A stretch of 64,000 nt of DNA from contig QKGM01000008.1 of the NCBI GenBank assembly GCA_003250395.1, positions 1 to 64,000 on the forward strand. Reading direction: 5' to 3'. Positions 1 to 44,589 of the stretch are shown here, piece by piece. The notes under the pieces were generated by a model, which was not told the origin of the DNA, did no database searches, and worked only from the letters and a program-made list of their open reading frames with translations. Numbering within the stretch: position 1 is the first letter of the stretch; every line of letters begins with the position of its first letter. This stretch comes from Bacteroidota bacterium. GTDB taxonomy: Bacteria; Bacteroidota; Bacteroidia; Bacteroidales; TTA-H9. Position numbers and translations under genes: made by a program.

Positions 1-440
1 TGTGTAACTCTGTGTAATAAGGCTTTGACATTGACTTTAACTTTAACCTTAACCTTGACTTTGATTTAAACATTGGCATTGCTTTGCTGGCGCGTGATGT
101 TTGCATCGCTATAGTTACACGGAGTACCACGGAGAGCCACAGAGAACCACAGAGTAAAGAATGAACTTTGAAATCAGATATGGATCTAAGGTCTCTATCC
201 AAAGCCAACCCCAAAGTCAACGCTATTAACATTGACTTGCCGGCCCGGAATATTGACGATGTGATTGTTTCACGGAGAACCAAGTAGAACCAAGGAGTGG
301 AAAAATTTCTTCTCTGTGTAACTCTGTGTCTTCTCTGTGTAGCTCTGTGTAATAAGGCTTTGACATTGACATTGACATTGACTTTAACATTGACTTGCCG
401 GCCCGGAATATTGACGATATGATTGTTTCACGGAGAACCA
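1..440. repeat. Hexanucleotide array with CACAGAG-type modules
   Basis: Runs of TTGACN/TTAACN hexamers (about 25-66 and 357-400) alternate with modules rich in CACAGAG/CTCTGTG (about 118-155 and 308-350). A module reading CTTGCCGGCCCGGAATATTGACGA-like sequence and then TTTCACGGAGAACCAA occurs twice, near 235 and near 393. The hexamers are imperfect and share only the pattern TTRRCN. Open reading frames here are by-products of the repeat. This looks like the same repeat family as at 2.8-3.8 kb and 7.7-8.75 kb. Confidence 0.75.
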
Positions 441-446
441 ATGAGG

Positions 447-818
447 TTAATATTTATATCTTTTAATTCCATTTTTAAGTATTGTCACATTAAAATTTAT
501 AAGTAGCCCTGTTTTCTTTGAGGCAAACTTCATATAAGTCAATATCTACGCTTCGTGAACCGGATTAAAACCATCAACTGTTTTTAATTCAATTACCACC
601 GCATCTTCGACCAGAATATCAATCCGGTATCCACAATCTAATTTGATATCTCTATAGACCACTGGAACCGCTACTTGTCTTTCTGTTTTTAATCCTTTGT
701 CCCTCAGTTCGAAAACCAGGCACTCTTCATACGCTGATTCCAAAAGCCCAGGACCAAGGTTTTTATGTACCTCTATTGCACAACCAATTATTATTTCTGT
801 GATTTGGTTTGTTTCCAT
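447..818 (-). pseudogene. GxxExxY protein gene interrupted by an amber codon
   Basis: The first 90 codons encode a GxxExxY-family protein (a PD-(D/E)xK-like fold of unknown role): the [13 protein letters not shown] signature is at residues 22-34 and the nuclease-like RIDILVED...VIELK segment follows. The open frame ends at TAG (546-548), exactly where the family normally has Gln after VHEA. Reading on in the same frame gives ILTYMKFASKKTGLLINFN and more, which is the expected family C-terminus, up to TAA at 447-449. That totals about 123 codons, the usual family length. One C-to-T change (CAG to TAG) therefore explains the truncation. The gene is either a recent pseudogene or is translated by suppression; I favour pseudogene. 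A hexamer/CACAGAG array lies directly downstream. Confidence 0.85.
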
Positions 819-848
819 ATCATTTTATTTATTACCCATAATTCATAT

Positions 849-2066
849 TTAATTTTGAGGAACTAATTTGTTTACTATCAATTTTTTCAAATAATCCGGA
901 TTCAGGTTGTCTGAATACTCATCCATACCGTTATCCGTCGCGTAGACCTTACCTTCCCTGGGTAAACCCTTGCCCCGATATTCCCAGGCAAAATTGCCGG
1001 CAGGTCGTATACGGATGCTGTGCTTTGTAGAATACCTCCGTGGAGGAAGTGGTACTTTGAAATTAAAACCCCCGTTCAGAACCCCGCCCGACCGAATCCC
1101 ATAAAATCCTATGGAGATTTCCCCTAATTGCCTGTACACATCGAACCGCCATCCTTTGTCTTTATCCAGAAACCTGCCGTAACCTGCCCTGAATGTCAGA
1201 TCGTATCTGGCCCAACGATAGCTTGCATCGGCAAACCATGTCAGGAGGCTTGCTTCTGTATAAGTCCATCGTCCATCCATAACACTGGCTTCTCCTGTAC
1301 ACCCGATTCGGAATCCTGCCGATACCTTACCATTATTGGTAAACTTTCTTGTTTCCAGATCAATTCCATAACGATTGCGGGTAAAATAACCTGCTGTTGC
1401 CGATGTGAAGATGTTAAATGGCAATCGTAAGGTCTGGGTGAGGGTCAATAATCCCGGCCTGATATAGTCACCTGCTTTTTCCAGATCATTTTGTAAAGGG
1501 ATGATGACCTGCGCGGTCAGATTCATCCCGTGCCAGAGTGATACATTCAAAGCTGGTGCAATATTTACCTGTGATTCGAGAGGATCGGAAAAGTTACCAA
1601 ACTGAGCATGAAATTGTGGATGAACAACTATATCAAATTTATTAAATGACGGGTTCTTCAACGTTGTCCTTAAGTATTGATGCTGATAATAGCTCACTTT
1701 TACTGCCGTTGAGAATTCATCCCTGTTTATTTCTCCGTTGATATACTGAAGGTAAGCTGATTTGCTGATCACACAGGTAATAACAGGAATCCCTTTTTTA
1801 TGGCCAATAAGACATAGAATGGTGCTGTCGGATAGTTGCCTCATGGTTTGATCTGTGATTTCAGCCATCGCGACAGCTTCCCAACGATAGACCCTGTTTT
1901 CGTAGCCGAGATACAGTGTGTCGTTTGCAAAACCAGCCGAAACATTTTCATAACCCAGATTTGTAAGCTTATTTCTTATGTCGGTAATATTGGGTATCGT
2001 ATCGGCAATACAGATGGTCGATAAAACGGTGGACAGGGTAATAGCTATTATCAGATTGATTCTCAT
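849..2066 (-). CDS. YjbH-like outer-membrane beta-barrel protein
   Basis: The 405-residue protein starts with a Sec signal peptide (about residues 1-21, ending near ICIAD). Alternating aromatic/polar strands and a final barrel-like section suggest an outer-membrane location. Two stretches resemble the YjbH (DUF940) family, which takes part in exopolysaccharide export or assembly in proteobacteria: RPGLLTLTQTLRLPFN near residues 200-215, and AGYGRFLDKDKG followed by a strand pair and a VPLPPRR segment. It is shorter than E. coli YjbH (about 700 residues). The exopolysaccharide cluster from 8.8 kb would suit such a role, but the Argonaute operon and repeats lie between. Family assignment is tentative; outer-membrane export is fairly safe. 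Confidence 0.6.
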   Translation of the reverse strand: MRINLIIAITLSTVLSTICIADTIPNITDIRNKLTNLGYENVSAGFANDTLYLGYENRVYRWEAVAMAEITDQTMRQLSDSTILCLIGHKKGIPVITCVISKSAYLQYINGEINRDEFSTAVKVSYYQHQYLRTTLKNPSFNKFDIVVHPQFHAQFGNFSDPLESQVNIAPALNVSLWHGMNLTAQVIIPLQNDLEKAGDYIRPGLLTLTQTLRLPFNIFTSATAGYFTRNRYGIDLETRKFTNNGKVSAGFRIGCTGEASVMDGRWTYTEASLLTWFADASYRWARYDLTFRAGYGRFLDKDKGWRFDVYRQLGEISIGFYGIRSGGVLNGGFNFKVPLPPRRYSTKHSIRIRPAGNFAWEYRGKGLPREGKVYATDNGMDEYSDNLNPDYLKKLIVNKLVPQN

Positions 2067-2809
2067 ATGTATTTGTATATCAGTGATCTTTAAATAGCCG
2101 TGATGTATATATATGCCTTTATCAATGGGTTTTACATTAGGAGTTTTGTTACCGGTCTTTTCGATTGCCCGAAGGATTTGATTAAGAGCTCAATGTTGGT
2201 GACTACCATTATAGGTTCTGGTTGCTAATAGAATGAATGTCATCTTGCTGGTAACCATGGTTCTGAAGAGCTGTGAGAAGTTGCTTTATACTTAATCGGG
2301 AGTTTGTATTCTCTTAAGTAAATACCTCCTTTTTTTGATCGTATTTTAGATTAATCAATATGGTTGATATCTACACGTGCTCTTAATTGCAATACATGGA
2401 ATTATGAATCGGTTTGCGAAGATGTAATAAAGTTTTTCCCATGCGCTGAGTCAATCTTAAGAATTGTCAGATATTGGAATCAAGGATGGTAGAATAAGGC
2501 TGATCTCTCCTGAAGTCAGGATTGTATCTCCATGTAGAAGTATGACATCAATAAAGAATTATCTGTCCGTTGCAGTATGGATGCTTCAGTTTAAATTGTC
2601 TGATTTGCAACATTTAAAATAAGAAGCTATCACCTATAGAATTCTCACATAATTAGAAGTGGCTCTAAAGATAGGTCAATTCCGGCTGAAAGTCAAGTGT
2701 TGTCTTTTGGAATTCAGTAATATAGTTACATATTATATATGTAGATGGGTTTGTTGTGTTGAGTTTTATAGCAGATGATGCGGTTATAACTACGAAGAAC
2801 CAAGAAGTA
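2067..2809. other. Gene-poor spacer, nothing recognised
   Basis: About 740 AT-rich bases upstream of the YjbH-like gene. I see no convincing coding sequence, RNA gene or repeat. The promoter of the 849-2066 gene should lie at its left edge on the minus strand, but no clear TAnnTTTG box was found. Confidence 0.5.
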
Positions 2810-3840
2810 TATAAATTCTCTCTTTGCACAACTCAAGGTAAAAAAGCTTTGACATTAACAATGACTTTGGCGTTGGCGATGGCATTGGCTTTACATTGAC
2901 TTTAACAATGACTTTGGCGTTGGCATTGGTATTGGCTTGCTGGCGCGTGATTTTAGCCGCATGATAATTTTACAGATTACCACATAGTTAAGAGTAATTT
3001 TGCTTGTAATCATATCTTGATCTATTGTTGCTATCAGAAGCCAAAGCTAAAGCTAATGCTATAGTTAAGGTCAAAGTCAAAGTCCCCCCATATTTATTAA
3101 CCTTGACATTAACAATGACTTTGGCGTTGGCATTGGCATTGGCTGGCTGGCGCGTGATTTTAGCCGCATGATAATTTTACAGATTACCACATAGTTAAGA
3201 GTATTTTTGCTTGTAATCATATCTTGATCTGTTGTTGCTATCAGAAGCCAAAGCCAAAGCTAATGCTATAGTTAAGGTCAAAGTCAAAGTCCCCCCATAT
3301 TTATTAACCTTAACATTAACATTGACTTTGGCGTTGGCATTGGCATTGGCTGGCGCAAGATGTTGGCAGCGCGATAGTTTCATAGAGAACAACAGAAAAC
3401 CATAGAGTTAAGAAAATATGCTTTGTGTGTTACAAATGAGTCGGTTGCGTGAGCTTTTCCCTGGGGCCTCTATAGCCAAAGCTAAAGCTAATGCTATAGT
3501 TAAGGTCAAAGTCAAAGTCCCCCCATATTTATTAACCTTGACATTAACAATGACTTTGGCGTTGGCATTGGCTTTGGCTCTATATTGACTTTAACTTTAA
3601 CAATGACTTTGGCGTTGGCATTGGCATTGGCTGGCTGGCGCGTGATTTTAGCCGCATGATAATTTTACAGATTACCACATAGTTAAGAGTAATTTTGCTT
3701 GTAATCATATCTTGATCTATTGTAGCTATCAGAAGCCAAGGCCAAAGCCAAAGCTAATGCCATAGTCAAGGTCATAGTCAAGGTCAAAGTCAAAGTCAAA
3801 GTCAACCTCAAAGCCACCGCCACCGCCATCTGCTCTCTTC
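2810..3840. repeat. Hexanucleotide inverted arrays with repeated spacer module
   Basis: Several composite units follow one another. Each has a GYYAAN array (AAAGCTAATGCTATAGTTAAGG...), a short centre CCCCCCATATTTATTAACC, then a TTRRCN array (TTGACATTAACAATGACTTTGG...), so the two halves are imperfect inverted repeats able to form a long G.U-rich hairpin. Between units is a module beginning TGGCGCGTGATTTTAGCCGC, at 2941, 3148 and 3636. A second module type (GCGCAAGATGTTG..., GAGTCGGTTGCGT) is near 3354-3470. The last array runs to within about 10 bp of the Argonaute stop codon, so it would lie in that gene's 3' untranslated region. Frames across it encode only dipeptide repeats and are not genes. 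Confidence 0.8.
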
Positions 3841-3844
3841 CCCT

Positions 3845-5929
3845 CTATAAAAACCACAACCTCGTTCTGCCGATTTCCTCATCCAGTGCTAACCGGCCGA
3901 GGAACGGAAAAACTGATAATAACAGGTCGGGCAGCTCAACCGATACCGGTAACCGTACCTGGTTCCTCATACGAAAGTTTATCAGGCAAAATTTGTAAAC
4001 CTGTTGTATTACCTCCCCGACTACTTTATTATCGAGATAACCTATACGGTTTGAGATGAGTTTTATCTTCAACTGAAGAGATGAAGATGTTTGATAACCA
4101 TGGTTTCCCGGATCGTTGCCATTAACAAACAGCAGGTAGGTGTTGGGTTTGATTTTTATATACGTACCGTCGGGTGGCAGGTACTGAGCATGGGCAGGGT
4201 TATGTATCCGGATCTTTTTCCCGCGGGGATGGCTGATGCCAACCAGCACAACCGGCAAATCATGTTCAACATCACCCAGGAAATCATCCAGCAGGTCGGA
4301 AATACGCCCTTTGATCTTCTTATGGTAATGGATCACCACCCTGCTTAAACGCGGGTACTCCTTCCTGTAATCGGTAATTGCTTCAAGAAGCGAGGCACGT
4401 AACAGCCAGTCGGGAGGATCGGGCCAAACATCAAACGACCGGCATACACCTGTCGTTTCAAATACAAAGACCGATGCTGCATCAGTGGAGGCAGTTTGTG
4501 ATAACCCTGTTTTGCTTGCTGACGGATTTGATGAAGTTGTGCCGGATGCCATTCCTACGACTATTTCCTTGTTTGCTGCAACAGGCAGGTGCCATGGAAT
4601 TCCACCCAGTTTAACAACAAGGGCAATAGCCATATCTGTGAGAACCTCTTCGGTGCGGGTGCTGTTTAATGATGCAATCTCGATGGTGTGCAAGGTAACA
4701 CCTCTTGTCAGGAGCTGTCCTGCCAGTTCGTAACGGAACGAAAATACCCCGTCTTTCCCGTTTGGCGATACTTGAGGTGCCAGGTACACTGCAAAGTAGG
4801 TCTGAGCGGGATCGGGTACCATTGGCTGAACCTCCCAGGCTGGTATTTCTTCCTGAGGTAACAGGTCGCTAAGAACGAGGTTGAGCGTCTGGTCCCATAC
4901 CATTGGAAGCCGGGTCAGCCTGGTGATTTGCTTTTGTCCTTCGGCGCAACAACACATCTTGATGAACTTTTCGGCCATTGCCTTATCTGACTGGTGACAG
5001 ATCACGAAGATACGAACATGACGGCAGGGCGGGAGAGAGGCAGGGCCGTATGACATTAGCCCGTGGAGGATATCAGTATCGGGATGGTTCTGTCCGAACC
5101 ACAGCGTTCGGTCATGGTTTTTAAGGATAAATTGCCGCGATCCCGGTACAGGCAGCCAGTGTCCGGTGTGTGGAATTATATTTCTGAAAGCCTGAGTGTT
5201 GAGGTATTTGCTGAAGAAATCATCAAGATGCCGGCCGACCCCGGCAGATGAAGAATCCTCCGGGTTTTCGTTTGGACTGATTCCCATTACTTCTCCCAGT
5301 CCCGGGTTATAAACCGGGAACACCTTCCTGAGACTATAGCGCACTTCTTCCGGTAACTCATCGTAACGGAGGACTTCATAGTTGTAGACTACCCACGTGA
5401 GACATCGCGGATCGAGTCTCCGCTCGTACACTAATCTCTCAACACTAATGCCTGCCAGCCACGTCCGCCCTTTGAAAATCACCCTGAGACGGGGTTTCCC
5501 ATGTTCATAGTCAGTTGCAACCTGTAACCTGAATCTGAGAAAACTGTGCAGATCAGGGGCACCCGGTGTCTTGCCCGCTGCAACCCAATATTCGTTACCG
5601 TGGTTCATGTCGGTTTTGTAAAACCTGACCAAAGGGGCAAGGTGTTCATGGATTTTATTGTGGTACCAGCACCGCATCAGTACAGGATAATGGACAGGTT
5701 CAAATTCAACCGGGAAGCCATCCTCCTGTGTACCGGAAAAATCAACCCAAATGAAAGGCGTCGCCCCGGAGAGGTTGGGAAATGCTTTCAGAATACTATG
5801 GGGCAGAAAGGAATAGTTTAATTGAACACCATTTTTGATTTTTTCCCCAAAGAGGTTTACTTTGATCAGGTGTTGCAAGTGGGCGAACGGTAGTTGGTTG
5901 CTGAAGAGAGGAGGGAGTGGTGTTGGCAT
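3845..5929 (-). CDS. Prokaryotic Argonaute (PIWI protein), probably catalytically inactive
   Basis: The 694-residue protein has an Argonaute C-terminal half. A MID-like region spans about residues 300-437. The hallmark KLGGIPWHLP comes next (440-449), then PIWI strands VVGMASG (457-463) and VVIHYHKK (531-538), and a C-terminal LPVSVELPDLL helix (660-670) with an aromatic/hydrophobic end (WFL). Residues 1-300 look like N/L1/L2 modules with little room for a full PAZ domain. The acidic residues expected in active PIWI domains are not visible: the first strand has no Asp (VVGMASG instead of the usual GxDxS) and the third reads IHYHKK instead of IHRDG. By family knowledge such proteins bind a guide and its target without cutting and signal through a partner. 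The partner here is presumably the HTH protein encoded 24 bp upstream on the same strand. Confidence 0.8.
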   Translation of the reverse strand: MPTPLPPLFSNQLPFAHLQHLIKVNLFGEKIKNGVQLNYSFLPHSILKAFPNLSGATPFIWVDFSGTQEDGFPVEFEPVHYPVLMRCWYHNKIHEHLAPLVRFYKTDMNHGNEYWVAAGKTPGAPDLHSFLRFRLQVATDYEHGKPRLRVIFKGRTWLAGISVERLVYERRLDPRCLTWVVYNYEVLRYDELPEEVRYSLRKVFPVYNPGLGEVMGISPNENPEDSSSAGVGRHLDDFFSKYLNTQAFRNIIPHTGHWLPVPGSRQFILKNHDRTLWFGQNHPDTDILHGLMSYGPASLPPCRHVRIFVICHQSDKAMAEKFIKMCCCAEGQKQITRLTRLPMVWDQTLNLVLSDLLPQEEIPAWEVQPMVPDPAQTYFAVYLAPQVSPNGKDGVFSFRYELAGQLLTRGVTLHTIEIASLNSTRTEEVLTDMAIALVVKLGGIPWHLPVAANKEIVVGMASGTTSSNPSASKTGLSQTASTDAASVFVFETTGVCRSFDVWPDPPDWLLRASLLEAITDYRKEYPRLSRVVIHYHKKIKGRISDLLDDFLGDVEHDLPVVLVGISHPRGKKIRIHNPAHAQYLPPDGTYIKIKPNTYLLFVNGNDPGNHGYQTSSSLQLKIKLISNRIGYLDNKVVGEVIQQVYKFCLINFRMRNQVRLPVSVELPDLLLSVFPFLGRLALDEEIGRTRLWFL

Positions 5930-5953
5930 TGAGTTCGGTATTGGTAATCGGAA

Positions 5954-6943
5954 TTAATTCTCAGGCTTTTTAAATCTGTTTATTACCTCAATCACCTCCT
6001 CTTTATTATACTCAAATCTTCGGCCTGTCTGGCGGCATTTCACCAGTAAACCGCTTGTTCGCCAATAGGTGAGTGTTGTACGGGCAATACCATAACGTTT
6101 AAGAATTTCTCCCGGGCGCAGGTATTGGGTGGTTGTTTCAGTTGAATTACTGCTCCTGCCAAGTTCAATAATCCCGTCCTTCAGTCTGGCCAGATCAAGT
6201 TTAACCTCATTGGCAATAGTCAGAAAATCTTCTGTCGAACAGATTTTGTTTTTCTCTCTAGACCGGCTTTCAGCAGCAGTGACCAGGGTTAGCAAACCGG
6301 CGAGTGCTTCGCGGGTATTTTCGACTCCTGCCGGCCAGTAATCCGGCATGTAGAGTCGTTTTAATGCCTCGTCTGCTGCATCTTTCATTTCGGTGGATTT
6401 TTGTTCTTTCGGCAGGGAGAGTGAGATTAACAGCAAAGCGAATGTGACGAACATATCGAAGTAAGTGAGGGTGGTCAGATATTCGTGATGTTGTATGGCT
6501 ATGTGAACCAGGTCGTGATGGTATTGGATCAGCCGGCGGGTTAACCTGTGGGTGTAGAGCAGGTAGAGTTCCCCTAAATAAATGTCTTTACGCGCCGATT
6601 CGAGGTGTGCCATCATTCGTTCAATGGTAAAGCCCATGATGAGAAAGGGGAGCCGTTCCGATTCCTTCTTTGGGGCACAGCAGAGAATCAGGTCGCGAAG
6701 CTTCCCTGATACTTTTTTTGAAGGAGGTGCCAGCGAAAATGCATGCCACTCGGCTAATAGTTTCGGTACAGCAGGAATTGATAAGGCCGCCATTCCCCGT
6801 GGAAGGTCGTGAAAAAAGATCTCCCCGGTAAGCGAAAAGTCGGACGGGAGTTGCCGGATGATGGTAAGCGGCCTGTATTCCGGTTTGAAAACATCCGTCC
6901 ATGGTGCAAGAGAACCGTAAAAGAGGTGTTGCAGGGTAATCAT
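5954..6943 (-). CDS. Argonaute-operon partner: unknown N-terminal domain plus excisionase/MerR-type HTH
   Basis: The 329-residue protein is first in the operon; its stop lies 24 bp before the Argonaute start. Residues about 273-325 form a helix-turn-helix of the excisionase/MerR type (YLRPGEILKRYGIARTTLTYW, then a GRRFEY wing), which predicts DNA binding. Residues 1-260 are mostly helical, with His-rich stretches (YHHDLVHIAIQHHEYL near 141-156) and a hydrophobic helix (about 159-177) that could be membrane-spanning or buried. I do not recognise this domain. It is not a TIR, SIR2, DREN-type nuclease or APAZ domain as far as I can see. It could be an effector, a guide-loading factor or an autoregulator. 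The gene call is strong; the function is unknown. Confidence 0.8.
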   Translation of the reverse strand: MITLQHLFYGSLAPWTDVFKPEYRPLTIIRQLPSDFSLTGEIFFHDLPRGMAALSIPAVPKLLAEWHAFSLAPPSKKVSGKLRDLILCCAPKKESERLPFLIMGFTIERMMAHLESARKDIYLGELYLLYTHRLTRRLIQYHHDLVHIAIQHHEYLTTLTYFDMFVTFALLLISLSLPKEQKSTEMKDAADEALKRLYMPDYWPAGVENTREALAGLLTLVTAAESRSREKNKICSTEDFLTIANEVKLDLARLKDGIIELGRSSNSTETTTQYLRPGEILKRYGIARTTLTYWRTSGLLVKCRQTGRRFEYNKEEVIEVINRFKKPEN

Positions 6944-6955
6944 ACTTCTATGATT

Positions 6956-7231
6956 TTAATAACCGACACTGAGAATCAATACAAAAATCGTGCTAACCTG
7001 AATTCTCGCTCTGGTGAAAGTTGATCTTAATACCGGTTTTGTAGCAGCAGATGAAGGGCGGTGCAGGGATTTATTCACAATTGTGAACCTGAGCCGACAA
7101 GCCACCTGAATTTCTGGTTTAACCTCGTTACAGGATGCAGGGAACTCCCTTTGGATATCGATCCCCACAACAGTCACGCTGGCTGGTTCACCTTTAACAT
7201 CCCCGGGGATGTTTTTTTTAATTTTACCCAT
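6956..7231 (-). CDS. Possible small protein upstream of the Argonaute operon
   Basis: A 91-codon frame starting at the MGKIKKNIPGD methionine ends 12 bp before the HTH gene start, on the same strand; an upstream start at 7327 would give 123 codons. The composition is balanced (VTVVGIDIQREFP, VACRLRFTIVNKSL) and not made of repeats, but no family is recognised. It could equally be leader sequence. Gene status is doubtful. Confidence 0.25.
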   Translation of the reverse strand: MGKIKKNIPGDVKGEPASVTVVGIDIQREFPASCNEVKPEIQVACRLRFTIVNKSLHRPSSAATKPVLRSTFTRARIQVSTIFVLILSVGY

Positions 7232-7329
7232 TGCTTTAAATTTTTGAGGTGAATAACTCAGTGAATTTCTGTGACCGGCTTTCGGGTATTCACCGGCCCA
7301 GGATCTCCTCTGGCAAATTCCTGGCAAAT

Positions 7330-7650
7330 GGGGAAAAATTGTTCGAACTGTTCAAAGATTAGTTCAATTTTCTTTAAAAATTTACATACGGCAAAATGAC
7401 CTGTATAATTGAATGTGTGGTATAAATATCAGTATGTAAGTAATTTATCACCCGGAATGAAAGATAAATGCACTCTGTGGCCTGAGATGGATTTTATCCT
7501 TTTGTTCGAACTTCGTTCAATGAATCCGAAAGAATCTCCTTTTTTGAAAGATTTCGTTCGAAATTCGTTCATTGGAGAAATAGTAACAAGAAGTCACGTT
7601 TAGAACAGGCTGATAATCAAGTGAAAGATAGACCAAAGATAGACCAAAGT
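7330..7650. repeat. GTTCGAAC-type dyads and a short 11-bp repeat
   Basis: Three clusters of GTTCGAA/TTCGAAC half-sites lie upstream of the Argonaute operon: 7341-7368, 7504-7521 (GTTCGAACTTC then GTTCAATGAAT, 11-bp spacing) and 7556-7572 (GTTCGAAATTC then GTTCATTGGAG, again 11 bp). At 7624-7645 the 11-mer AAAGATAGACC is repeated twice in tandem. They could be operator sites for the HTH protein or remains of a repeat family. No gene is convincing in 7330-7720. Confidence 0.5.
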
Positions 7651-7719
7651 TTTATCTGAGAGGGAGCGGAGCCTTTTGGCGGGTATCTTTTGGGCGGGTT
7701 TTCAGTAAGTTAGGGGAAG

Positions 7720-8023
7720 CATTGGCGATGGCTTTACGTTGACTTTAACATTGGCATTAACTTTAATATTGGCTTTGGCATTGGCATTGGCTATGGCTTT
7801 ACTTTGACTTTAACATTAACATTAACATTAACATTGGCATTGGCTTTGGCATTGGCTTGCTGGCGCGTGATTTTAGCCGCTTGATAATTTTAAAGATAAC
7901 CATATTGTTAAAAGTAATTTTGCTTGTAATCAGATATTTACCCATTAGTGGTTATCTGGAGCTAAAGCCAACGCCAAAGCCAAAGTTCCCCCATATTTAT
8001 TAACTTTGACATTAACCTTGACC
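7720..8023. repeat. Hexanucleotide arrays and a direct copy of the left-flank module
   Basis: TTRRCN hexamers run at about 7730-7858. A copy of the TGGCGCGTGATTTTAGCCGC module starts at 7861, in the same orientation as those at 2941, 3148 and 3636. GYYAAN hexamers and a CCCCCATATTTATTAAC centre follow. The Argonaute operon therefore sits between direct copies of one repeat unit. Confidence 0.75.
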
Positions 8024-8745
8024 GCTGGCGCAAGATGTTGTCAGCACGATTATTTAACAGAGAGCCACAGAGTTAAGAAAGAATCCTCAGTGTAATACGG
8101 ATGAGTCGGTTGCGTTGGCTTTTCCCGGGGGTCTCTTTAGCCAAAGCTAAAGCCAACGCCAATGTAGTAATTAACCTTGGCATTAGCTATGGCATTGGCT
8201 TGCTGACGCAAGATGTTGTCAGCGCGGTTATTTAACAGATAGCCATAGAGTTAAGAAAAAATCCTCAGTGAAACACGGCTGAGTCGGTTGCGTTGACTTT
8301 TCCCGGGAGCCTTTTAAAGCCAAAGCTAAAGCCAACGCCAATGTAGTAATTAACCTTGGCATTAGCTATGGCATTGGCTTGCTGACGCAAGATGTTGTCA
8401 GCGTGGTTATTTAACAGATAGCCATAGAGTTAAGAAAAAATCCTCAGTGAAACACGGCTGAGTCGGTTGCGTTGACTTTTCCCGGGGGTCTCTTTAGCCA
8501 AAGCTAAAGCCAACGCCAATGTAGTAATTAACCTTGGCATTAGCTATGGCATTGGCTTGCTGTCGCGTGATTTTAGCCATATGATAGTTTCAACGAGAAC
8601 CATGGAGATCCACAGAGAACCACAGAGTTAAGAAAGAATCCTCAGTGTAATACGGATGAGTCGGTTGCGTTGGCTTTTCCCGGGTGCCTTTTAAAGCCAA
8701 AGCTAATGCCAACGCCAATGTAGTAATTAACCTTGGCATTGGCTA
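8024..8745. repeat. Four tandem units of about 178 bp
   Basis: Units begin with GCTGRCGCAAGATGTTG-like sequence at 8024, 8202, 8381 and (variant GCTGTCGCGTGATTTTAGCC) 8559, spaced 178, 179 and 178 bp. Each has a CAGAGTTAAGAAA module, a GAGTCGGTTGCGT module, a TTTTCCCGGG centre, GYYAAN hexamers, TAGTAATTAACC, and TTRRCN hexamers. The second and third units are almost identical, which points to recent tandem duplication. No coding sequence is supported here. Confidence 0.8.
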
Positions 8746-8803
8746 ACAATATTAACTTTTACTTCTCACGGTAATCCGGCGAGGTTGGCTTTAGAAACTC
8801 TGT

Positions 8804-8811
8804 TAACTTTG
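8804..8811 (+). promoter_or_regulatory. Candidate -7 box TAACTTTG for the LegC-type gene
   Basis: TAACTTTG fits the Bacteroidota TAnnTTTG -7 element and lies 19 bp before the ATG at 8831, just beyond the repeat array. The -33 TTTG element is not clear. Confidence 0.4.
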
Positions 8812-8830
8812 CATTGCTAAATTTAGAACA

Positions 8831-10036
8831 ATGAAATCATACAGTAACATTGTCGATTTTGTCAGGGAAACCTATAATTTGCCTGAAGCATTCATTCCAT
8901 TGCATGATCCCCGGTTCATCGGCAATGAACGTAAGTATCTGAACGAGTGTATTGATACAAATTTTGTGAGTAGTGTTGGTGAGTTTGTCAGCCGGTTCGA
9001 AAAGTTGTGTGCCGATTATACGGGATCGCGGTATGCCGTAGCCGCGATGAATGGCACCGCTGCCCTGCACATGGCGCTTCACATCAATGGTGTAACAAGG
9101 GGTGATGAGGTTATTACCCAGTCGCTCACTTTTATTGCTACTGCCAATGCTATCAGCTACACGGGAGCACATCCGGTATTTCTGGATGTTGACCGTGACA
9201 CCATGGGGTTATCGCCGCAGGCTGTTGAAGCCTGGCTTGTTGAGAACGCTGAGATGAGAGCAACTGAAGGGAACACGCCTTCGGGCAGCGGTTCAAGATA
9301 TTCGGCTTATAATAAATATACCAACAGGCGTATAGCTGCCTGTGTGCCCATGCACTCTTTCGGGCATCCTGTCCGCATTGAAGAGTTGATGCTGGTTCTC
9401 GACCAGTATAACATACCATTGATTGAGGATGCCGCCGAGAGTCTGGGCAGCTTCATCGGCGAACGCCATACCGGAACTTTCGGAAGGTGCGGTATTCTCA
9501 GTTTTAATGGTAATAAGGTGATTACCACTGGTGGCGGAGGGATGATACTCACCAATGATGAATCACTGGCAAAAATGGCCAAACACCTGACTACTCAGGC
9601 AAAGGTTCCTCACAGGTGGGAATTCCGGCATGATTTCGTCGGGTATAATTATCGCCTCACCAATCTTGCTGCTGCTCTCGGATGTGCACAGATAGAAAGT
9701 CTGGATCATATACTTCGACTGAAAAGAGATCTTGCTAATAAATACAGGGACTGGTTTAACGATGCCCCCTGGCAGTTTTTTGCCGAACGTGAAGGAACAC
9801 GTGCCAATTACTGGCTCAATGTTATCCTTGCCAACAATCGGGAAGAGCGTGACGAAATCCTCCAATACACCAATGATCATGGTGTCATGACGCGACCTGT
9901 ATGGGAACTGATGACCGACCTGCCCATGTTTGAACAGTGCCAGCATGATGACCTGATAAATTCTAGATGGTTTGCCGACAGGGTGGTTAACCTGCCCAGC
10001 AGCGCGGTGATAGAAGGATATGGAAAAATGATGTAA
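8831..10036 (+). CDS. LegC-type nucleotide-sugar aminotransferase (DegT/DnrJ/EryC1)
   Basis: This 401-residue PLP-dependent aminotransferase belongs to the DegT/DnrJ/EryC1/StrS family. The Schiff-base lysine is K229 in SFNGNKVITTGGGG, and the PLP-contacting Asp is D200 in IEDAAES. AMNGTAALH (72-80) is the phosphate-binding loop. The IPLHDPRFIGNE N-terminus and SLTFIATANAI stretch are typical of the LegC branch, which aminates a UDP-4-keto-6-deoxy-HexNAc. It works with the dehydratase at 10554, so the pair should make a UDP-4-amino-4,6-dideoxy-HexNAc for a surface glycan. No NeuB/NeuA-like genes are in the window, so legionaminic acid itself is not implied. Confidence 0.88.
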   Translation: MKSYSNIVDFVRETYNLPEAFIPLHDPRFIGNERKYLNECIDTNFVSSVGEFVSRFEKLCADYTGSRYAVAAMNGTAALHMALHINGVTRGDEVITQSLTFIATANAISYTGAHPVFLDVDRDTMGLSPQAVEAWLVENAEMRATEGNTPSGSGSRYSAYNKYTNRRIAACVPMHSFGHPVRIEELMLVLDQYNIPLIEDAAESLGSFIGERHTGTFGRCGILSFNGNKVITTGGGGMILTNDESLAKMAKHLTTQAKVPHRWEFRHDFVGYNYRLTNLAAALGCAQIESLDHILRLKRDLANKYRDWFNDAPWQFFAEREGTRANYWLNVILANNREERDEILQYTNDHGVMTRPVWELMTDLPMFEQCQHDDLINSRWFADRVVNLPSSAVIEGYGKMM

Positions 10037-10039
10037 ACA

Positions 10040-10100
10040 TGTTTTATAATGGTTTTTAACCTTAACTATAACTTTGACCTTGACCTACAGACTTATGATG
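10040..10100. repeat. Short hexamer remnant before the four-helix-bundle gene
   Basis: TTTTAACCTTAACTATAACTTTGACCTTGACC at about 10051-10085 is a short TTRRCN array of the kind at 2.8-3.8 kb. A matching GYYAAN array lies just after the next gene (10490-10545), so the gene is bracketed by inverted arms. Confidence 0.6.
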
Positions 10101-10107
10101 TTATATT

Positions 10108-10470
10108 ATGAGGAATTTCAGAGATTACGATATTTGGAAAGAAGCAATTAATACTGCTAGAACTGTATATTTAATAACCAGGTTATTCCCTTCTCATGAG
10201 AGGTTTGGTCTGGCAGGTCAGATGCAACGGGCAAGTGTTTCAATTGGTTCTAATATAGCAGAAGGAGCATCGAGAAGCTCCCCGAAGGAATTTATTCGGT
10301 TTCTGGAAATGAGTGTTGGTTCCGCATTTGAACTGGAAACCCAAATGATGATTGCCTTTGAAATAGGTTATGTAGCTGATGAAGAGAAAGAAGAGTTTAT
10401 TGAGCCACTTCATAGACTTCAGAAACAGATTCATGGACTAATTGAATCTATAGCCCATAGCAAACCATGA
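10108..10470 (+). CDS. Four-helix-bundle protein (23S rRNA intervening-sequence family)
   Basis: The 120-residue protein matches the small S23/IVS four-helix-bundle family by its RDYDIWKEAI N-terminus, the QMQRASVSIGSNIAEG core (37-52) and SSPKEFIRFLEMSVGSAFELETQ. The fold is a helical bundle; the cellular role is unknown, and members also occur inside 23S rRNA intervening sequences. It interrupts the LegC/LegB gene pair and is bracketed by hexamer arrays, so it looks like a passenger of the repeat family and not part of the polysaccharide pathway. Confidence 0.85.
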   Translation: MRNFRDYDIWKEAINTARTVYLITRLFPSHERFGLAGQMQRASVSIGSNIAEGASRSSPKEFIRFLEMSVGSAFELETQMMIAFEIGYVADEEKEEFIEPLHRLQKQIHGLIESIAHSKP

Positions 10471-10487
10471 TTTGATATTCCCTATTC

Positions 10488-10550
10488 ATGTCAAAGTCAA
10501 AGTTAAGGTCAAAGTCAAAGTTAAAGTCAAGTCAACTCCAACGTCAAAAT
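10488..10550. repeat. GYYAAN hexamer array overlapping the apparent 5' end of the dehydratase frame
   Basis: ATGTCAAAGTCAAAGTTAAG and further GTCAAA/GTTAAG units form the other arm of the pair around the four-helix-bundle gene. Translated in frame it gives SKSKLRSKSKLKS, which is not part of the dehydratase fold. Confidence 0.7.
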
Positions 10551-10553
10551 CTT

Positions 10554-11762
10554 ATGCTAAACATTAATAAATTTATCTCCGATTCAATTACAAACAGAAA
10601 AGACAGCTTCTTTTCGGCAGATTTAGAGAAATTTCATGAAGAGTTATCAGGCAGCATCAGGAATAAATCTGTTTTGGTGATCGGGGGGGCTGGGACGATC
10701 GGATCGTCGTATATCCGGTCGGTTTTGAAATACAGGCCATCGAAACTCTATGTTGTTGATATTTCAGAAAACAGCCTGACAGAGCTGACGCGTGATTTGC
10801 GCAGCACGTCGGGCGGGTATGTTCCCGATGATTACAAAACTTATCCTGTCAATTACAACGATGATGTTTTTTACAGGATGCTGGGCAAGGAGGGGCCTTT
10901 CGACATTGTAGCGAATTTCTCGGCACACAAGCATGTTCGTAGCGAGAAAGACCATTACAGCATTACAGCTTTGCTTGAGAACAATGTGATACGGGCCGAG
11001 AAACTAATGAGGGTACTGGCCAAGAATCCACCTGAGCATTTTTTTTGTGTCTCAACCGATAAGGCGGCAAATCCTGTTAATATAATGGGAGCCAGTAAGA
11101 AAATGATGGAGGAGATGATCATGGCTTATGCCGGCAGTTTCCCGGTTACCACTGCCCGTTTTGCAAACGTGGCTTTCAGCAATGGCAGCCTGCTCGATGG
11201 TTTTATCCAGCGGATGATGAAAAGGCAACCATTTTCAGTTCCCACCGATGTGAAACGGTACTTTGTATCACCCGATGAGTCGGGGCAGATTTGTATGATG
11301 GCCTGCATGCTCGGACAGACAGGCGAGATCTTCTTCCCGAAACTTGAAGAGCATCAGTTAACTTCATTCAAAGATATTACAGAAGCTTTCGTGAAGTCGA
11401 TAGGCATGGAAGTGTTACCATTCGATTCGGAACAGGCCGCCCGGGAATATGCCGCCAAGATGCCTGAGGACACGAAATTCTGGCCGGTTTTTTATTTTAC
11501 TTCCGACACATCGGGTGAGAAATCGTTTGAAGAGTTTTTCACAGAAGGTGAAGCCCTTGACCTTGATACTTTTCACTCGCTGGGTGTAATCAGGAATGCT
11601 CCCCGTCGTTCGACAGCAGATGTACACCGGATGATCAGTGACCTGGAAAACGTTCTGTTACTTCCTGAAGTTAAGAAAGCCGACATAGTCAAGGTAATGC
11701 AGAAATTTCTCCCGAATTTTCATCATATAGAAACCGGGAAAAGCCTCGATCAAAAGATGTGA
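10554..11762 (+). CDS. UDP-HexNAc 4,6-dehydratase, LegB/CapD-like (SDR)
   Basis: The protein has 402 residues from the ATG at 10554. An upstream in-frame ATG at 10488 would only add repeat-coded residues, so I reject it. The Rossmann motif GGAGTIGSSY (44-53) binds NAD(P), and NFSAHKHVRSEKD matches the polysaccharide biosynthesis CapD/FlaA1 dehydratase family (PF02719). STDKAANPVNIMGASKK (167-183) carries the catalytic TDK and lysine in place of the usual SDR Tyr-x3-Lys. The reaction removes water from a UDP-HexNAc to give the 4-keto-6-deoxy sugar used by the LegC-type aminotransferase encoded 0.5 kb upstream. It is a short cytoplasmic form without the membrane domain of CapD. Confidence 0.87.
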   Translation: MLNINKFISDSITNRKDSFFSADLEKFHEELSGSIRNKSVLVIGGAGTIGSSYIRSVLKYRPSKLYVVDISENSLTELTRDLRSTSGGYVPDDYKTYPVNYNDDVFYRMLGKEGPFDIVANFSAHKHVRSEKDHYSITALLENNVIRAEKLMRVLAKNPPEHFFCVSTDKAANPVNIMGASKKMMEEMIMAYAGSFPVTTARFANVAFSNGSLLDGFIQRMMKRQPFSVPTDVKRYFVSPDESGQICMMACMLGQTGEIFFPKLEEHQLTSFKDITEAFVKSIGMEVLPFDSEQAAREYAAKMPEDTKFWPVFYFTSDTSGEKSFEEFFTEGEALDLDTFHSLGVIRNAPRRSTADVHRMISDLENVLLLPEVKKADIVKVMQKFLPNFHHIETGKSLDQKM

Positions 11763-40752: not shown

Positions 40753-43700
40753 TTAAGGTGTAATAGCTTTAATGAGTTTAAATCCTGTAGAAACAGAATT
40801 GCCTTCTTTGTCAATCAGTATGATACGTGCTGGATATACACCAAAGGGCAGCAGTGCATTGGAATTGTTTTTTCCATTCCAGGTTATACTAACGACCTTT
40901 CCGTTAATGGACTGCGGCGAAGTTGAGTTAGAGTATACAAGTCTGCCTGATAGATCATATACCTGCAATGTGGCGTTAATTTCAGTATCGTTACTGGTAA
41001 CATTGAAACTAATTGTAGTTGATTCAGTGAATGGATTGGGCCTAACTGTCATGTCAGAAACAGAAATCCCGGAAGAAGTCTCACCAACATAAAAACTTAG
41101 GGTAATGGAGGCAGCATTATTATTAATATCGAAGGCTCTGAGTACAAGAGTATGAGCTCCACTGCTTAAAGAAGGGAGCATAATGCTGAGATTTCCTGAA
41201 CGTGAGTCATCGATGGTAGGTTGAAAATAGTTGTTCAGTATGATTGTTTCAGAAGATTCATTGTCGATTACAGCAGTTATATCATGGCCAAAACCTAAGC
41301 CAGAAAAATTTATACCTAGATTGTCACTTATTTCAGCTATCAGCAATGGTGTTTCACTGACTTTGTCTCCATTTTTGAATGTACGATTCTCAAGCCAGGC
41401 TTTAATAACCGGAGGTTGGTCATCCGCCAGGCCCTGAGTATCTGAGCCTTCGAAGAATAGCCCTTTTTCATACCCGGTAGCATCCACCGTCGAATCGGTT
41501 GCGTAGAGGCTTAATAGTGGGTAACCACCAGCCATTTGCATGTCACGGGGAGCTATGAATGAGAAGTTAAATTTTCCATTCTCAACCGAAGCTCTTCCGT
41601 TGAGTAGCTGCTGGTTTGTCACCGGGAAGGTAAAGGGTTTGGACTTAGGATCGTTGACAAGGGTTGTAACATTCATTGGCTTATCGAAAAGCTTGTAGGA
41701 GAGTGTACCATTAAAATCATTGAGCAGACTGGCTGAAGCCGATATTACTACTCCTTCAATATGAATTTCTGACAGGGCTTTGAGCGTACTTTGGAAATCA
41801 TTAACTTGTGTTCCGTTTACTTTAGTTATACGGATTCGATTTACAGGGTAACTTGGTTTTAATGCCGGATCACCCAATAATGTAATATTGCGCATCTTTG
41901 TGTCGTTGTCATTGGCATTTTTTGACAACCTAATAATGTCACCGAATGTATAATCATTTGGTCTTCCGTTGGCAAACCAAATCAGGTAGAGCGATTCGTT
42001 CAGATAGAAGTTGATGGTCGAGTATGCCAGTCTGGTAGTTGTAATAAGTCCAATGCCGCCTCCATTAGGGTTTAGTAGGACTCTTTCTCCTGCTGAGAGA
42101 AGTCCGGGATCATCGAATCGACTAAATTCACAAGTGGCTGTAATGAACAGTGGTAATCCGTTAAAGTTTTCCCAGGCTTCAATATCCGGGATCTCAAGAA
42201 CTTTTTCTTCACTCCATCCCAACTCCCCACCGTGTCCTGTGTAATTTACGATTTGACAACCATGATTAACATACTGATTAAGTGATGACTTCGCTCCCGG
42301 GTATCTGTTACCTGAAGGTGTTGATGTCTGAACAAAGGCATCGAGATATACTTTATTTATTACCTGACCCGGTAGTAAGGTATCAACAGCCATTGCTAAT
42401 TTGTGGGATTGAATGATATGGGTGTTACTGTCTTCATCATCAGCCACAAAAGTAAACTGGTTGCGCCAGTCACCGAAGGTCTCAGGTTGTTGAGTGAGAT
42501 AATATTCAATTTTATCAACCACAGTTTTACTTTGGCGAAGCGTTGATACAGGAAATCTTCCAATCCCTATGTCGAGTGTCCCGTTAGCAGAATTACCTTC
42601 TCCATAATCCAGTACGCCAAAGAAATCATCAGTTACATAGCTTGCACCAAGGTTGAATGATTCAATCGATTCGTATGCCGGGATGAGATTCTGGTTGTTG
42701 GGAATTCGGTTGAGCGGATCATAACTTCCATCTCCAAAAAGCAAGAGATATTTTGGTGCACTTCCGTTTGAAAGTCCACGATCGTATAGCATCCGCATAA
42801 AGCCTCTGATGGCCATTGGGTCTGCAATCCCCCCTCCAAATTCATTGATTATCTGTTGAATAGATATTATGTGGCAGGTGAGATGGCTGTAATTGCGATG
42901 CAGGTCAGCCAGACGTTCAGCTTCACTAATAAGTGAATCAGGGGCAATAATGATGTAGTCGGCGGGTTGGAGTGAGTGAAGGTTTTGATTTGGTACGGAC
43001 TGATCGAATTCAGGAGTTAATTCGTCTCCATCTTCAAAAACAACGAAGCGGTGAAAAGTTGAAGTATTCATTCTGACACGGCCTAAATTCAGGTCATTGT
43101 CGAAGACGTAATTACACTTGAAAGTGGAGTCAGAATTAGTAACATCCCAGATATGTTGACTGCCTGTCAGGTTGGAAAATATCATTTCCGGTGTTATTAA
43201 AGATTCACGCTCCGGACCATAAAAAACAGGCATTTGTCCATCAGTATATTGAAGCTTACGAACTAATTGAAGTGAAAAATACTCAAGGTAACCAACTGGA
43301 TTTGAACCAACCATATCATACCAGATTGAAACGTTGATGTTGTCTGAAGAAGGGAAGAAACCCTGCGACTTTGTAGTTTTTGTTGCAGTGTTATAAATAA
43401 GCTCATTACCTGTCAGTTTCCTGATCGAGGCTTTGATTAGTTGTGACCCATTTACACCTGCGTAGAAGTAACTGGCCATATTTGACCAACCAGCAACGGA
43501 GATTTCAAGCGAAGCAGCTGACGTCGATACAATATTTGGGAAATTCATAACAAAATGATGGGGTTCGGTGCTTCTAAATGGTACCTTGCTAACCCAAATT
43601 CGTCCTGTTCTGCTAACCGATACGCTGTCGGGTTTAAAATATTGGAAATCCGGGAAAGTCGTAACCTGATGTGTAGGGCTGTTCGTTACATTATTTCTGA

Positions 43701-44589
43701 TCATTACCCTTGAAGGTGCAGTATCATTGATATTAAGGAAATATGGAATCTGAACCGCATAAGGGTTTTTATTTTCTTTAAACTTTTTTGAACTGATATT
43801 GTATGTCCACCGCTTTGGCCCGTTCGCCCAAAAGCGAATGTAATCGCCTTGATCAAAATGACCATCTTCCCCTCCTATAATCTCTATTCCTACTGCAATC
43901 ATATCATCTGGGAATGTATTTCCGTTAGTTTCACTAATAGTTTCTCCTCCATTGCTATACAATCCTATTTTTGCAGGATCGATGACTGAAGGATTAATAC
44001 CCCAGGTTGCAAAATCATTGTAAGTTATTTTGTAAATACCATCAGAGGGGATTAAGAGTTTATACCAGGTGCCAGTGGCTAATATTGACTGCTCTTTCCA
44101 AATGACACTGGTTGTTTGTTTTAATTCAACATCATTTTTAATAGTATCAATGACCAGATCAAATGATTTGATCAGTAATATTTTTCCATCAGAATTTTTT
44201 ATAATTGGAATGAATCCGAATTCCACTTTATGGTTACCCCGTTCAATACTACGCTTTATGACGGGAGTCACATGATCAGACAAAAGGGAAGAATCTTTTG
44301 GAGTTAAGGTAACATTTGCAACAGGTTCTATCAGAACAATGTTTTCAACGCGAGCGCTATAGTTTGTATGTGGTGCTATATTATCTATTTGCCATGTGAA
44401 AACGGGAAGTGTTTCCGCATAATCACGGACGACAAATCCTGTAAAAACAGGTAATTCTGTATTAATAATTGTTGCGTCTGATTGATAACTCCAGGTAAGT
44501 GTTTTGCTGATTTTTAATTCAGTAGCAGAAGTTCCTGTTGTTAGTATTATATAGAATAATAGAGAAAAGTACCGATAGATTTTTTTCAT
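40753..44589 (-). CDS. porU: T9SS sortase PorU, copy A (next to porV)
   Basis: The 1278-residue C25 (gingipain-like) peptidase removes the C-terminal signal from T9SS cargo and transfers the cargo to A-LPS. A signal peptide (residues 1-22) and a beta-rich N-terminal part come first. The caspase-like domain (about 540-915) carries catalytic His786 in NYTGHGGELGW and Cys820 in TATCEFSRFDDP. Ig-like domains follow, then a C-terminal T9SS-type domain (NPFTESTTISF, YDLSGRLVYS, GVYPARI, residues about 1185-1278). It lies 151 bp behind a paralogue of exactly the same length. Confidence 0.92.
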   Translation of the reverse strand: MKKIYRYFSLLFYIILTTGTSATELKISKTLTWSYQSDATIINTELPVFTGFVVRDYAETLPVFTWQIDNIAPHTNYSARVENIVLIEPVANVTLTPKDSSLLSDHVTPVIKRSIERGNHKVEFGFIPIIKNSDGKILLIKSFDLVIDTIKNDVELKQTTSVIWKEQSILATGTWYKLLIPSDGIYKITYNDFATWGINPSVIDPAKIGLYSNGGETISETNGNTFPDDMIAVGIEIIGGEDGHFDQGDYIRFWANGPKRWTYNISSKKFKENKNPYAVQIPYFLNINDTAPSRVMIRNNVTNSPTHQVTTFPDFQYFKPDSVSVSRTGRIWVSKVPFRSTEPHHFVMNFPNIVSTSAASLEISVAGWSNMASYFYAGVNGSQLIKASIRKLTGNELIYNTATKTTKSQGFFPSSDNINVSIWYDMVGSNPVGYLEYFSLQLVRKLQYTDGQMPVFYGPERESLITPEMIFSNLTGSQHIWDVTNSDSTFKCNYVFDNDLNLGRVRMNTSTFHRFVVFEDGDELTPEFDQSVPNQNLHSLQPADYIIIAPDSLISEAERLADLHRNYSHLTCHIISIQQIINEFGGGIADPMAIRGFMRMLYDRGLSNGSAPKYLLLFGDGSYDPLNRIPNNQNLIPAYESIESFNLGASYVTDDFFGVLDYGEGNSANGTLDIGIGRFPVSTLRQSKTVVDKIEYYLTQQPETFGDWRNQFTFVADDEDSNTHIIQSHKLAMAVDTLLPGQVINKVYLDAFVQTSTPSGNRYPGAKSSLNQYVNHGCQIVNYTGHGGELGWSEEKVLEIPDIEAWENFNGLPLFITATCEFSRFDDPGLLSAGERVLLNPNGGGIGLITTTRLAYSTINFYLNESLYLIWFANGRPNDYTFGDIIRLSKNANDNDTKMRNITLLGDPALKPSYPVNRIRITKVNGTQVNDFQSTLKALSEIHIEGVVISASASLLNDFNGTLSYKLFDKPMNVTTLVNDPKSKPFTFPVTNQQLLNGRASVENGKFNFSFIAPRDMQMAGGYPLLSLYATDSTVDATGYEKGLFFEGSDTQGLADDQPPVIKAWLENRTFKNGDKVSETPLLIAEISDNLGINFSGLGFGHDITAVIDNESSETIILNNYFQPTIDDSRSGNLSIMLPSLSSGAHTLVLRAFDINNNAASITLSFYVGETSSGISVSDMTVRPNPFTESTTISFNVTSNDTEINATLQVYDLSGRLVYSNSTSPQSINGKVVSITWNGKNNSNALLPFGVYPARIILIDKEGNSVSTGFKLIKAITP

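What the first reader, a model, noticed from the sequence alone, without database searches (positions are those of the whole stretch)
2810..3840. Hexanucleotide arrays arranged as long imperfect hairpins
GYYAAN arrays are joined to TTRRCN arrays through a CCCCCCATATTTATTAACC centre, so each unit is a degenerate inverted repeat that keeps the six-base phase and pairing class while single bases drift. The conserved phase suggests selection for structure or a special copying mechanism. One array is directly downstream of the Argonaute stop, so the hairpin would be transcribed with it; a link to guide supply is only a thought.
Basis: partly seen in the sequence, partly recalled or inferred. Interest (0 to 1): 0.58.

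Follow-up and report, generated by a model that had tools for sequence, protein, structure and literature searches.

The report
Hexamer hairpins resembling rRNA intervening sequences
Degenerate six-base repeats near an Argonaute gene form inverted arms around a short conserved core, and look like the arms that in many bacteria flank genes for a small "23S intervening-sequence" protein of unknown function.

Summary
In detail: 10 GYYAAN and 15 NTTRRC arrays in the window, none in 5 Markov controls; genome-wide 261 pattern hits against 0 in the backwards control. They belong to a genus-level interspersed repeat: outer GTY hexamers grading to GCC, a conserved ~55-bp core, often a second inverted arm. 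The hairpins fold far better than base shuffles, but only 2 of 14 beat hexamer-order shuffles: class and orientation are kept, not base-by-base pairing.

The lead: the only array-type four-helix-bundle (S23/IVP, PF05635) gene found in this genome sits between inverted hexamer arms in the window. Across Bacteroidota, flanks of such genes carry degenerate 6-8-base arrays (22/43 and 26/43 sites; controls 1-4/43), usually inverted; 16 plasmid loci, 14 cyanobacterial, agree. One orthologous site is filled, empty, or holds an array hairpin without the gene. I read the window arrays as mostly gene-less, period-6 relatives of intervening-sequence elements, outside rRNA. RNA processing and mobility are inferred. 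Against: most hexamer arrays here have no such gene nearby and many lack an inverted partner. Nothing supports an Argonaute guide role.

The parts
24..77 (+). NTTRRC array (9 units), left edge of window
359..394 (+). NTTRRC array (6 units), beside a GxxExxY gene
459..806 (-). GxxExxY gene (PF13366, PDDEXK_3) with one in-frame TAG
   Evidence: E 6.5e-42; TIGR04256, open part only
2848..3081 (+). Gene-less element 1: NTTRRC arms 2848-2936, core 2937-3039, GYYAAN arm 3040-3081
3084..3102 (+).
3096..3288 (+). Gene-less element 2: NTTRRC arm 3096-3143, core 3144-3246, GYYAAN arm 3247-3288
3303..3516 (+). Gene-less element 3: NTTRRC arm 3303-3350, core 3351-3474, GYYAAN arm 3475-3516
3531..3830 (+). 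Gene-less element 4: NTTRRC arms 3531-3578 and 3584-3631, core 3632-3734, GYYAAN arm 3735-3830
3845..5929 (-). Prokaryotic Argonaute gene; neighbour, not part of the element
7732..7984 (+). Gene-less element 5: NTTRRC arms 7732-7856, core 7857-7960, GYYAAN arm 7961-7984
7999..8719 (+). Gene-less elements 6-9 in tandem (7999-8163, 8170-8342, 8349-8520, 8527-8719), unit about 179 bp
10055..10084 (+). NTTRRC arm upstream of the four-helix-bundle gene
10108..10470 (+). Four-helix-bundle (S23/IVP) gene, PF05635 / TIGR02436
10490..10531 (+). GYYAAN arm downstream of the four-helix-bundle gene

Best explanation
The hexamer arrays are the arms of intervening-sequence-like (IVS-like) elements that live outside rRNA. 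The full form is: degenerate short-period array, gene for a four-helix-bundle (S23/IVP, PF05635) protein, inverted array; one such element lies at 10055-10531. Nine gene-less elements at 2848-3830 and 7732-8719 keep the arms around a conserved core instead of the gene, and have multiplied by tandem duplication and dispersal within this genus. Proposed working (inferred): when transcribed with neighbouring genes the two arms pair into a long imperfect stem, as in 23S rRNA IVSs, which RNase III would cut; this tolerates drift because only repeat class and phase matter. Shown here: the arrays, their polarity, the core, the inverted arms, the link of short-period, mostly inverted arrays to PF05635 genes within the phylum and on plasmids of other phyla, and the filled / empty / gene-less states of one orthologous site. 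Not shown: transcription, cleavage, mobility, or any role of the protein.
For: The window's PF05635 gene is flanked by inverted hexamer arms 23 nt upstream and 19 nt downstream. 43 site clusters from 111 PF05635 loci: tandem structure in 22 (upstream) and 26 (downstream) of 43 against 2, 4, 4 and 1 of 43 in four control windows; inverted match beats direct in 33 of 43 and cross-site pairs in 35 of 43, Wilcoxon 1e-7. Arms have a median of 4.4 and 5.6 units and the upstream strand is AG-rich (AG:CT 268:158, control 200:187). Named plasmids, 16 of 24 records read: 12 and 13 of 16 significant, 14 of 16 more inverted than direct, control 0 of 16. Site A (18 orthologue rows): 11 gene plus arms, 3 empty without arrays, 2 array hairpin without the gene, 2 other neighbourhood; both gene-less hairpins fold below all 200 shuffles. 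Conserved core in 16 aligned own-genome copies and 9 places in G134; GCC ends face the core. Coxiella 23S IVS has an S23p ORF, tandem heptamers before it and a 28-bp stem cut by RNase III (PMC4990558).
Against: In this genus the link rests on one gene: the other PF05635 gene of G000 has no arrays, and G134 has cores and arrays but only one weak PF05635 gene of the array-less kind. 5 of 8 other own-genome stretches have arrays in one orientation only. Pairing is no better than hexamer-order shuffles in 12 of 14 pairs, and arms of one species are not better matched to each other than to another species' arms at the same site (own best in 7 of 38, 7 expected). Some PF05635 flanks are direct repeats or bare (L119; Pseudanabaena, Nostoc HK-01, Calothrix PCC 7716). 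PF05635 flanks use mostly period 7, here 6. The PF05635 sample is the top of a score list.
Confidence: 0.5

Rival explanations
1. A genus-specific interspersed and tandem repeat without function: microsatellite-like arrays growing by slippage, attached to a core that spreads by recombination or gene conversion; the four-helix-bundle gene merely lies among them.
For: Near-identical tandem units of 207-228 and about 179 bp; most arrays far from any PF05635 gene and often unpaired; no base-specific pairing; only 2 of 9 family genomes carry the polar arrays.
Against: Free drift should hit G1 and A4 as often as the C/T positions, but they are kept at 97 and 98% (detector bias noted). Polarity towards the core is kept across arrays. 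Short-period arrays around PF05635 genes recur independently in other families and phyla.
Confidence: 0.3
2. Arrays are binding platforms: the S23/IVP protein, a pentameric ring in solved structures, or another oligomer contacts one repeat unit per subunit on DNA or RNA, so phase and a few bases per unit are kept while the rest drifts.
For: Median 4.4 and 5.6 units per arm; solved relatives 2gsc and 2rld have five chains each (pentamer and toroid are stated in PMC4990558); conserved class without exact pairing.
Against: Window arms have 4 to 16 units, not five; the inverted arrangement is not explained; arrays persist without the gene. No binding data.
Confidence: 0.12
3. A MITE- or REP-like DNA element mobilised by a transposase in trans; arms and core are its ends.
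For: Dispersed core with inverted arms, intergenic, gene-less copies.
Against: Core shows no conserved hairpin; arm length and sequence vary widely, unlike defined transposon ends; no target-site duplication or transposase was identified (not searched genome-wide).
Confidence: 0.06
4. The array downstream of Argonaute supplies guides to it.
For: Adjacency only: 14 nt from the stop codon.
Against: Same arrays in at least 10 contigs, beside unrelated genes.
Confidence: 0.02

Closest known systems
23S rRNA intervening sequences with the S23p/IVP ORF (Coxiella burnetii IVS, PMC4990558; abstract, introduction, discussion and passages read)
   Same: Same protein family (PF05635 carries its name); inverted-repeat stem enclosing the ORF; tandem heptamers (GACAGAT) next to the ORF that vary in number.
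   Different: Window elements lie outside rRNA, have hexamers with long arms, and are mostly gene-less around a core; RNase III cutting is shown for Coxiella in vitro, not here.
GGGNATC heptamer repeats of Xanthomonas and Nostoc (PMC4692102; abstract and passages read)
   Same: Degenerate short-period intergenic arrays, many transcribed; 70 and 75 inverted pairs in two Xanthomonas genomes.
   Different: Period 7, G-quadruplex interpretation, and no link to S23 proteins in the text ('S23' and 'four-helix' do not occur).
TAACTGA heptamer repeats of Beggiatoaceae, Cyanobacteria and some Bacteroidetes (PMC4679880; abstract, one section and passages read)
   Same: Intergenic heptamer arrays; relatives with a shorter spacer lacking repeats.
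   Different: Mostly direct repeats upstream of start codons, read as regulator sites; 'S23' does not occur in the text.
Degenerate heptanucleotide repeats of the Nostoc tRNA-Leu intron P6b stem (PMC3488679; passages read)
   Same: Degenerate tandem repeats on two sides that base pair into one hairpin and vary in copy number.
   Different: Inside a group I intron, period 7, no protein gene.
Cyanobacterial STRR heptamers (recalled; only listings seen)
   Same: Degenerate heptamers, intergenic, multicopy.
   Different: Not compared in sequence here; the link of such heptamers to S23 genes on cyanobacterial plasmids is.

Membership tests
rRNA intervening sequence (IVS) | Lies inside a 16S or 23S rRNA gene | tested here: not met
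   Elements lie between protein genes; no rRNA model match in window 1-11000 at E<=1
rRNA intervening sequence (IVS) | Terminal inverted repeats forming a stem | tested here: met
   12 of 14 window arm pairs fold below all base shuffles
rRNA intervening sequence (IVS) | S23p/IVP ORF between the arms (in some IVSs) | tested here: met
   Met for 1 element (10055-10531); the nine other window elements have no PF05635 ORF
rRNA intervening sequence (IVS) | Excision by RNase III | not testable with these tools
   No transcript data
Array-flanked PF05635 element outside rRNA (the class described here) | Degenerate 6-8-base tandem arrays inverted on both sides of the gene | tested here: met
   10055-10084 / 10490-10531: period 6, 5.2 and 6.8 units, inverted
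REP / REPIN | Short conserved palindrome | tested here: not met
   22 cores: RNAalifold consensus of 2 pairs, no covariation
MITE | Fixed terminal inverted repeats with target-site duplication | not tested
   Ends vary in length; target duplications were not searched
Simple sequence repeat (microsatellite) | Head-to-tail short unit expanding by slippage | tested here: inconclusive
   Head-to-tail hexamers met, but degenerate and polar towards a core; slippage itself not observed

The most novel reading that the evidence does not exclude
Many unexplained 6-10-base repeat arrays of bacterial intergenic regions are arms of one general class of IVS-like elements outside rRNA, carrying either a four-helix-bundle (S23) or a GxxExxY protein, with gene-less derivatives; the protein ring or the enclosed RNA stem reads the repeat class and phase rather than exact sequence, which lets arms drift while staying in register.
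Probability: 0.3. Interest if true: 0.82.

Novelty: new variant of a known kind. Interest (0 to 1): 0.6.

Why it matters
S23/IVP proteins have no known function (PMC4990558), and short-period bacterial repeat arrays have been described several times without a settled role (PMC4692102, PMC4679880). A systematic link between the two, seen here in Bacteroidota, Cyanobacteriota and one alphaproteobacterium, would turn two open questions into one testable system: is the array a processed RNA stem, a protein-binding platform, or a mobility signal?

Tried and rejected
Arm-to-arm compensatory change: rejected. Core hairpin: GCTGAC..GTCAGC looked promising by eye, but RNAalifold finds 2 pairs and no covariation. 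Coding repeat: one strand reads [AV][KN] dipeptides, but the arrays lie mostly between genes and no long ORF explains them (judged by reading). Known RNA family: nothing at E<=1 in window 1-11000 except a sub-threshold lncRNA model outside the arrays. Promoter- or terminator-like sites at 2700-4000: no clear excess over shuffles. Phage carriers of the window's 4HB protein: no match. Pattern scan of 84,980 species genomes: 43 stretches, by their titles mostly from unrelated phyla and perhaps coding repeats (not checked); no 4HB gene in any of the 43 fetched stretches, so the hexamer word is not a marker of the element outside the genus. A first alignment test of flanks was weak because its controls included homologous flanks; it was replaced. 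De novo scan of 400 kb of one genome (20 stretches of G268): at score 10, 7 noncoding segments of period 7-8, 3 of them within 150 nt of the seven 4HB genes there; a gene-less small hairpin is seen near L303:3543.

Rows left out: 4 of 115 PF05635 loci cut by contig ends; 1 of 30 GxxExxY loci; of 25 genomes searched for the PaaI-like protein 18 with a clear orthologue were read, 2 of which (G311, G322) have other neighbours; 8 of 24 plasmid records were not read. PF05635 loci come from the top of the score list and several were fetched twice; site clustering collapses these.

Full report
What was checked. The window carries 10 GYYAAN and 15 NTTRRC arrays of at least four units, and five first-order Markov versions of the window carry none. 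In the 2.98-Mb, 76%-complete own genome the class pattern occurs 243 times against 3 control hits and 261 against 0, in at least ten contigs. Among 198 genomes of the order, 7 have five consecutive units; in several of these the array is a near-perfect repeat of one word, while degenerate arrays are seen in the own genome, one genome of the same genus (G134) and, as a single place, one genome of another family. In the family 2 of 9 genomes have the polar pattern.

Anatomy. Unique arrays from the first 11 kb of the window and seven other stretches of the genome (51 arrays, 393 hexamers; detection favours GYYAAN, and paralogous copies are not independent) have G1 in 97%, A4 in 98%, only C or T at position 2, A or T in nearly all at position 5 and any base at position 6. 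Position 2 falls from 85% C at one end to 27% C at the other (permutation p 0.0005). The GCC end faces a conserved core, about GCTGGCGCAAGATGTTGKCAGCGCGATTATTTCACAGAGA, in 16 aligned own-genome copies and 9 places of G134. The three junction units are recent tandem copies. Of eight other stretches fetched from this genome, five have arrays in one orientation only, two in both, one has none: the hairpin is the rule in the window but not obligatory elsewhere.

Folding. RNA folding of 14 arm pairs: 12 lie below every base shuffle, but against shuffles of hexamer order only two reach a fraction of 0.05 or less (0.02 and 0.03), both pairing through the core. Pairing follows from class and orientation; there is no sign of base-by-base selection. 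The same holds elsewhere: at seven orthologous site clusters the two arms of one species are not better matched than arms mixed between species (own best in 7 of 38, 7 expected).

The link to S23/IVP proteins. At 10108-10470 lies a four-helix-bundle gene (PF05635 '23S rRNA-intervening sequence protein', E 5.4e-34; TIGR02436) with an NTTRRC array 23 nt upstream and a GYYAAN array 19 nt downstream. PF05635 genes are common in the phylum (157 of 198 genomes, up to 16 copies). Of 115 loci fetched 111 were used, in 43 site clusters. Upstream and downstream 100-nt windows have degenerate tandem structure in 22 and 26 of 43 sites, nearly always of period 7 or 8; windows 200-400 nt away in 2, 4 and 4 of 43, inside the gene in 1. 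The two sides match as inverted rather than direct repeats (33 of 43) and better than sides taken from other sites (35 of 43, Wilcoxon 1e-7). Nine loci of a weaker PF05635 subfamily, fixed beside one conserved gene, show no arrays by eye. On plasmids 16 of 24 records were read (14 cyanobacterial, one Azospirillum, one Riemerella): 12 and 13 of 16 flanks are significant, 14 of 16 more inverted than direct, inside-gene control 0 of 16. Exceptions: direct arrays in Pseudanabaena and Nostoc HK-01, none in Calothrix PCC 7716.

One site in three states. Between a PaaI-like thioesterase gene and a thiolase gene (names by recall of the sequences; 18 orthologue rows out of 25 genomes searched) 11 genomes have the 4HB gene with arms, three have spacers of 25 to about 40 bp without arrays, two have an array hairpin with no gene, and two have other neighbours. 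The two hairpins fold below all 200 dinucleotide shuffles. Gene-less array hairpins thus occur where relatives have the gene-bearing element, which is the reading I apply to the window.

A second family. GxxExxY genes (PF13366) show a similar pattern with mostly 9-10-base repeats such as CACAGAGAAC/CTCTGTGGTT: 9 and 7 of 29 flanks significant, controls 2 and 3 of 29; inverted median 15 against direct 9; rank p<=0.05 in 10 of 29. The window has one such gene (459-806) with an in-frame stop, and the decamer lies inside the hexamer element's core. Two repeat systems are nested here.

Interpretation and limits. Coxiella's 23S IVS carries an S23p ORF, tandem heptamers before it and a 28-bp terminal stem, and is cut by RNase III in vitro (PMC4990558). 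The window elements resemble it, outside rRNA and with hexamers. They fail the defining location of an IVS and are therefore called IVS-like only. Against the reading: in this genus one gene carries the link; G134 has cores and arrays with only one weak PF05635 gene; many arrays elsewhere in the genome are unpaired. A plain repeat family remains possible (0.3). Whether anything is transcribed, cut or mobile was not testable. In ten searches of the paper library I found no paper linking flanking short-period arrays to these genes outside rRNA; most subscription journals and preprints are not held.

Argonaute. The neighbour is a pAgo by PADLOC. The arrays occur in many places without it, so I find no support for a guide role.

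Noticed in passing
window 459-806 (-); L231-L259: GxxExxY (PF13366) genes are flanked by inverted 9-10-base arrays (CACAGAGAAC/CTCTGTGGTT) in part of the loci; the window's copy has an in-frame TAG.
   Followed up: partly
L347, L354, L355: Array-flanked four-helix-bundle genes sit inside CRISPR operons of cyanobacterial plasmids, between cas6 and cas4 (two records) and between cas10 and a cmr3-family gene (one record).
   Followed up: no
window 5954-6943 (-): Gene next to the pAgo has only a weak PADLOC hit near its C-terminus (mad1, E 3.3e-6) and no Pfam or NCBIfam hit.
   Followed up: no
window 40753-44589 and 44741-48577 (-): Two neighbouring ORFs of equal length (1278 aa); the first is a C25 peptidase.
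   Followed up: no
L068:436-2118 and 2757-4439: A gene and its flanking NTTRRC arrays are duplicated in tandem (two 560-aa ORFs with similar sequence; arrays repeat with a spacing of about 2310 bp).
   Followed up: no
L119, L122: In genomes of the same family four-helix-bundle genes carry long heptamer arrays (CCACTCC; CAGCCGC/CAGTAGC) that are partly in direct, not inverted, orientation.
   Followed up: partly
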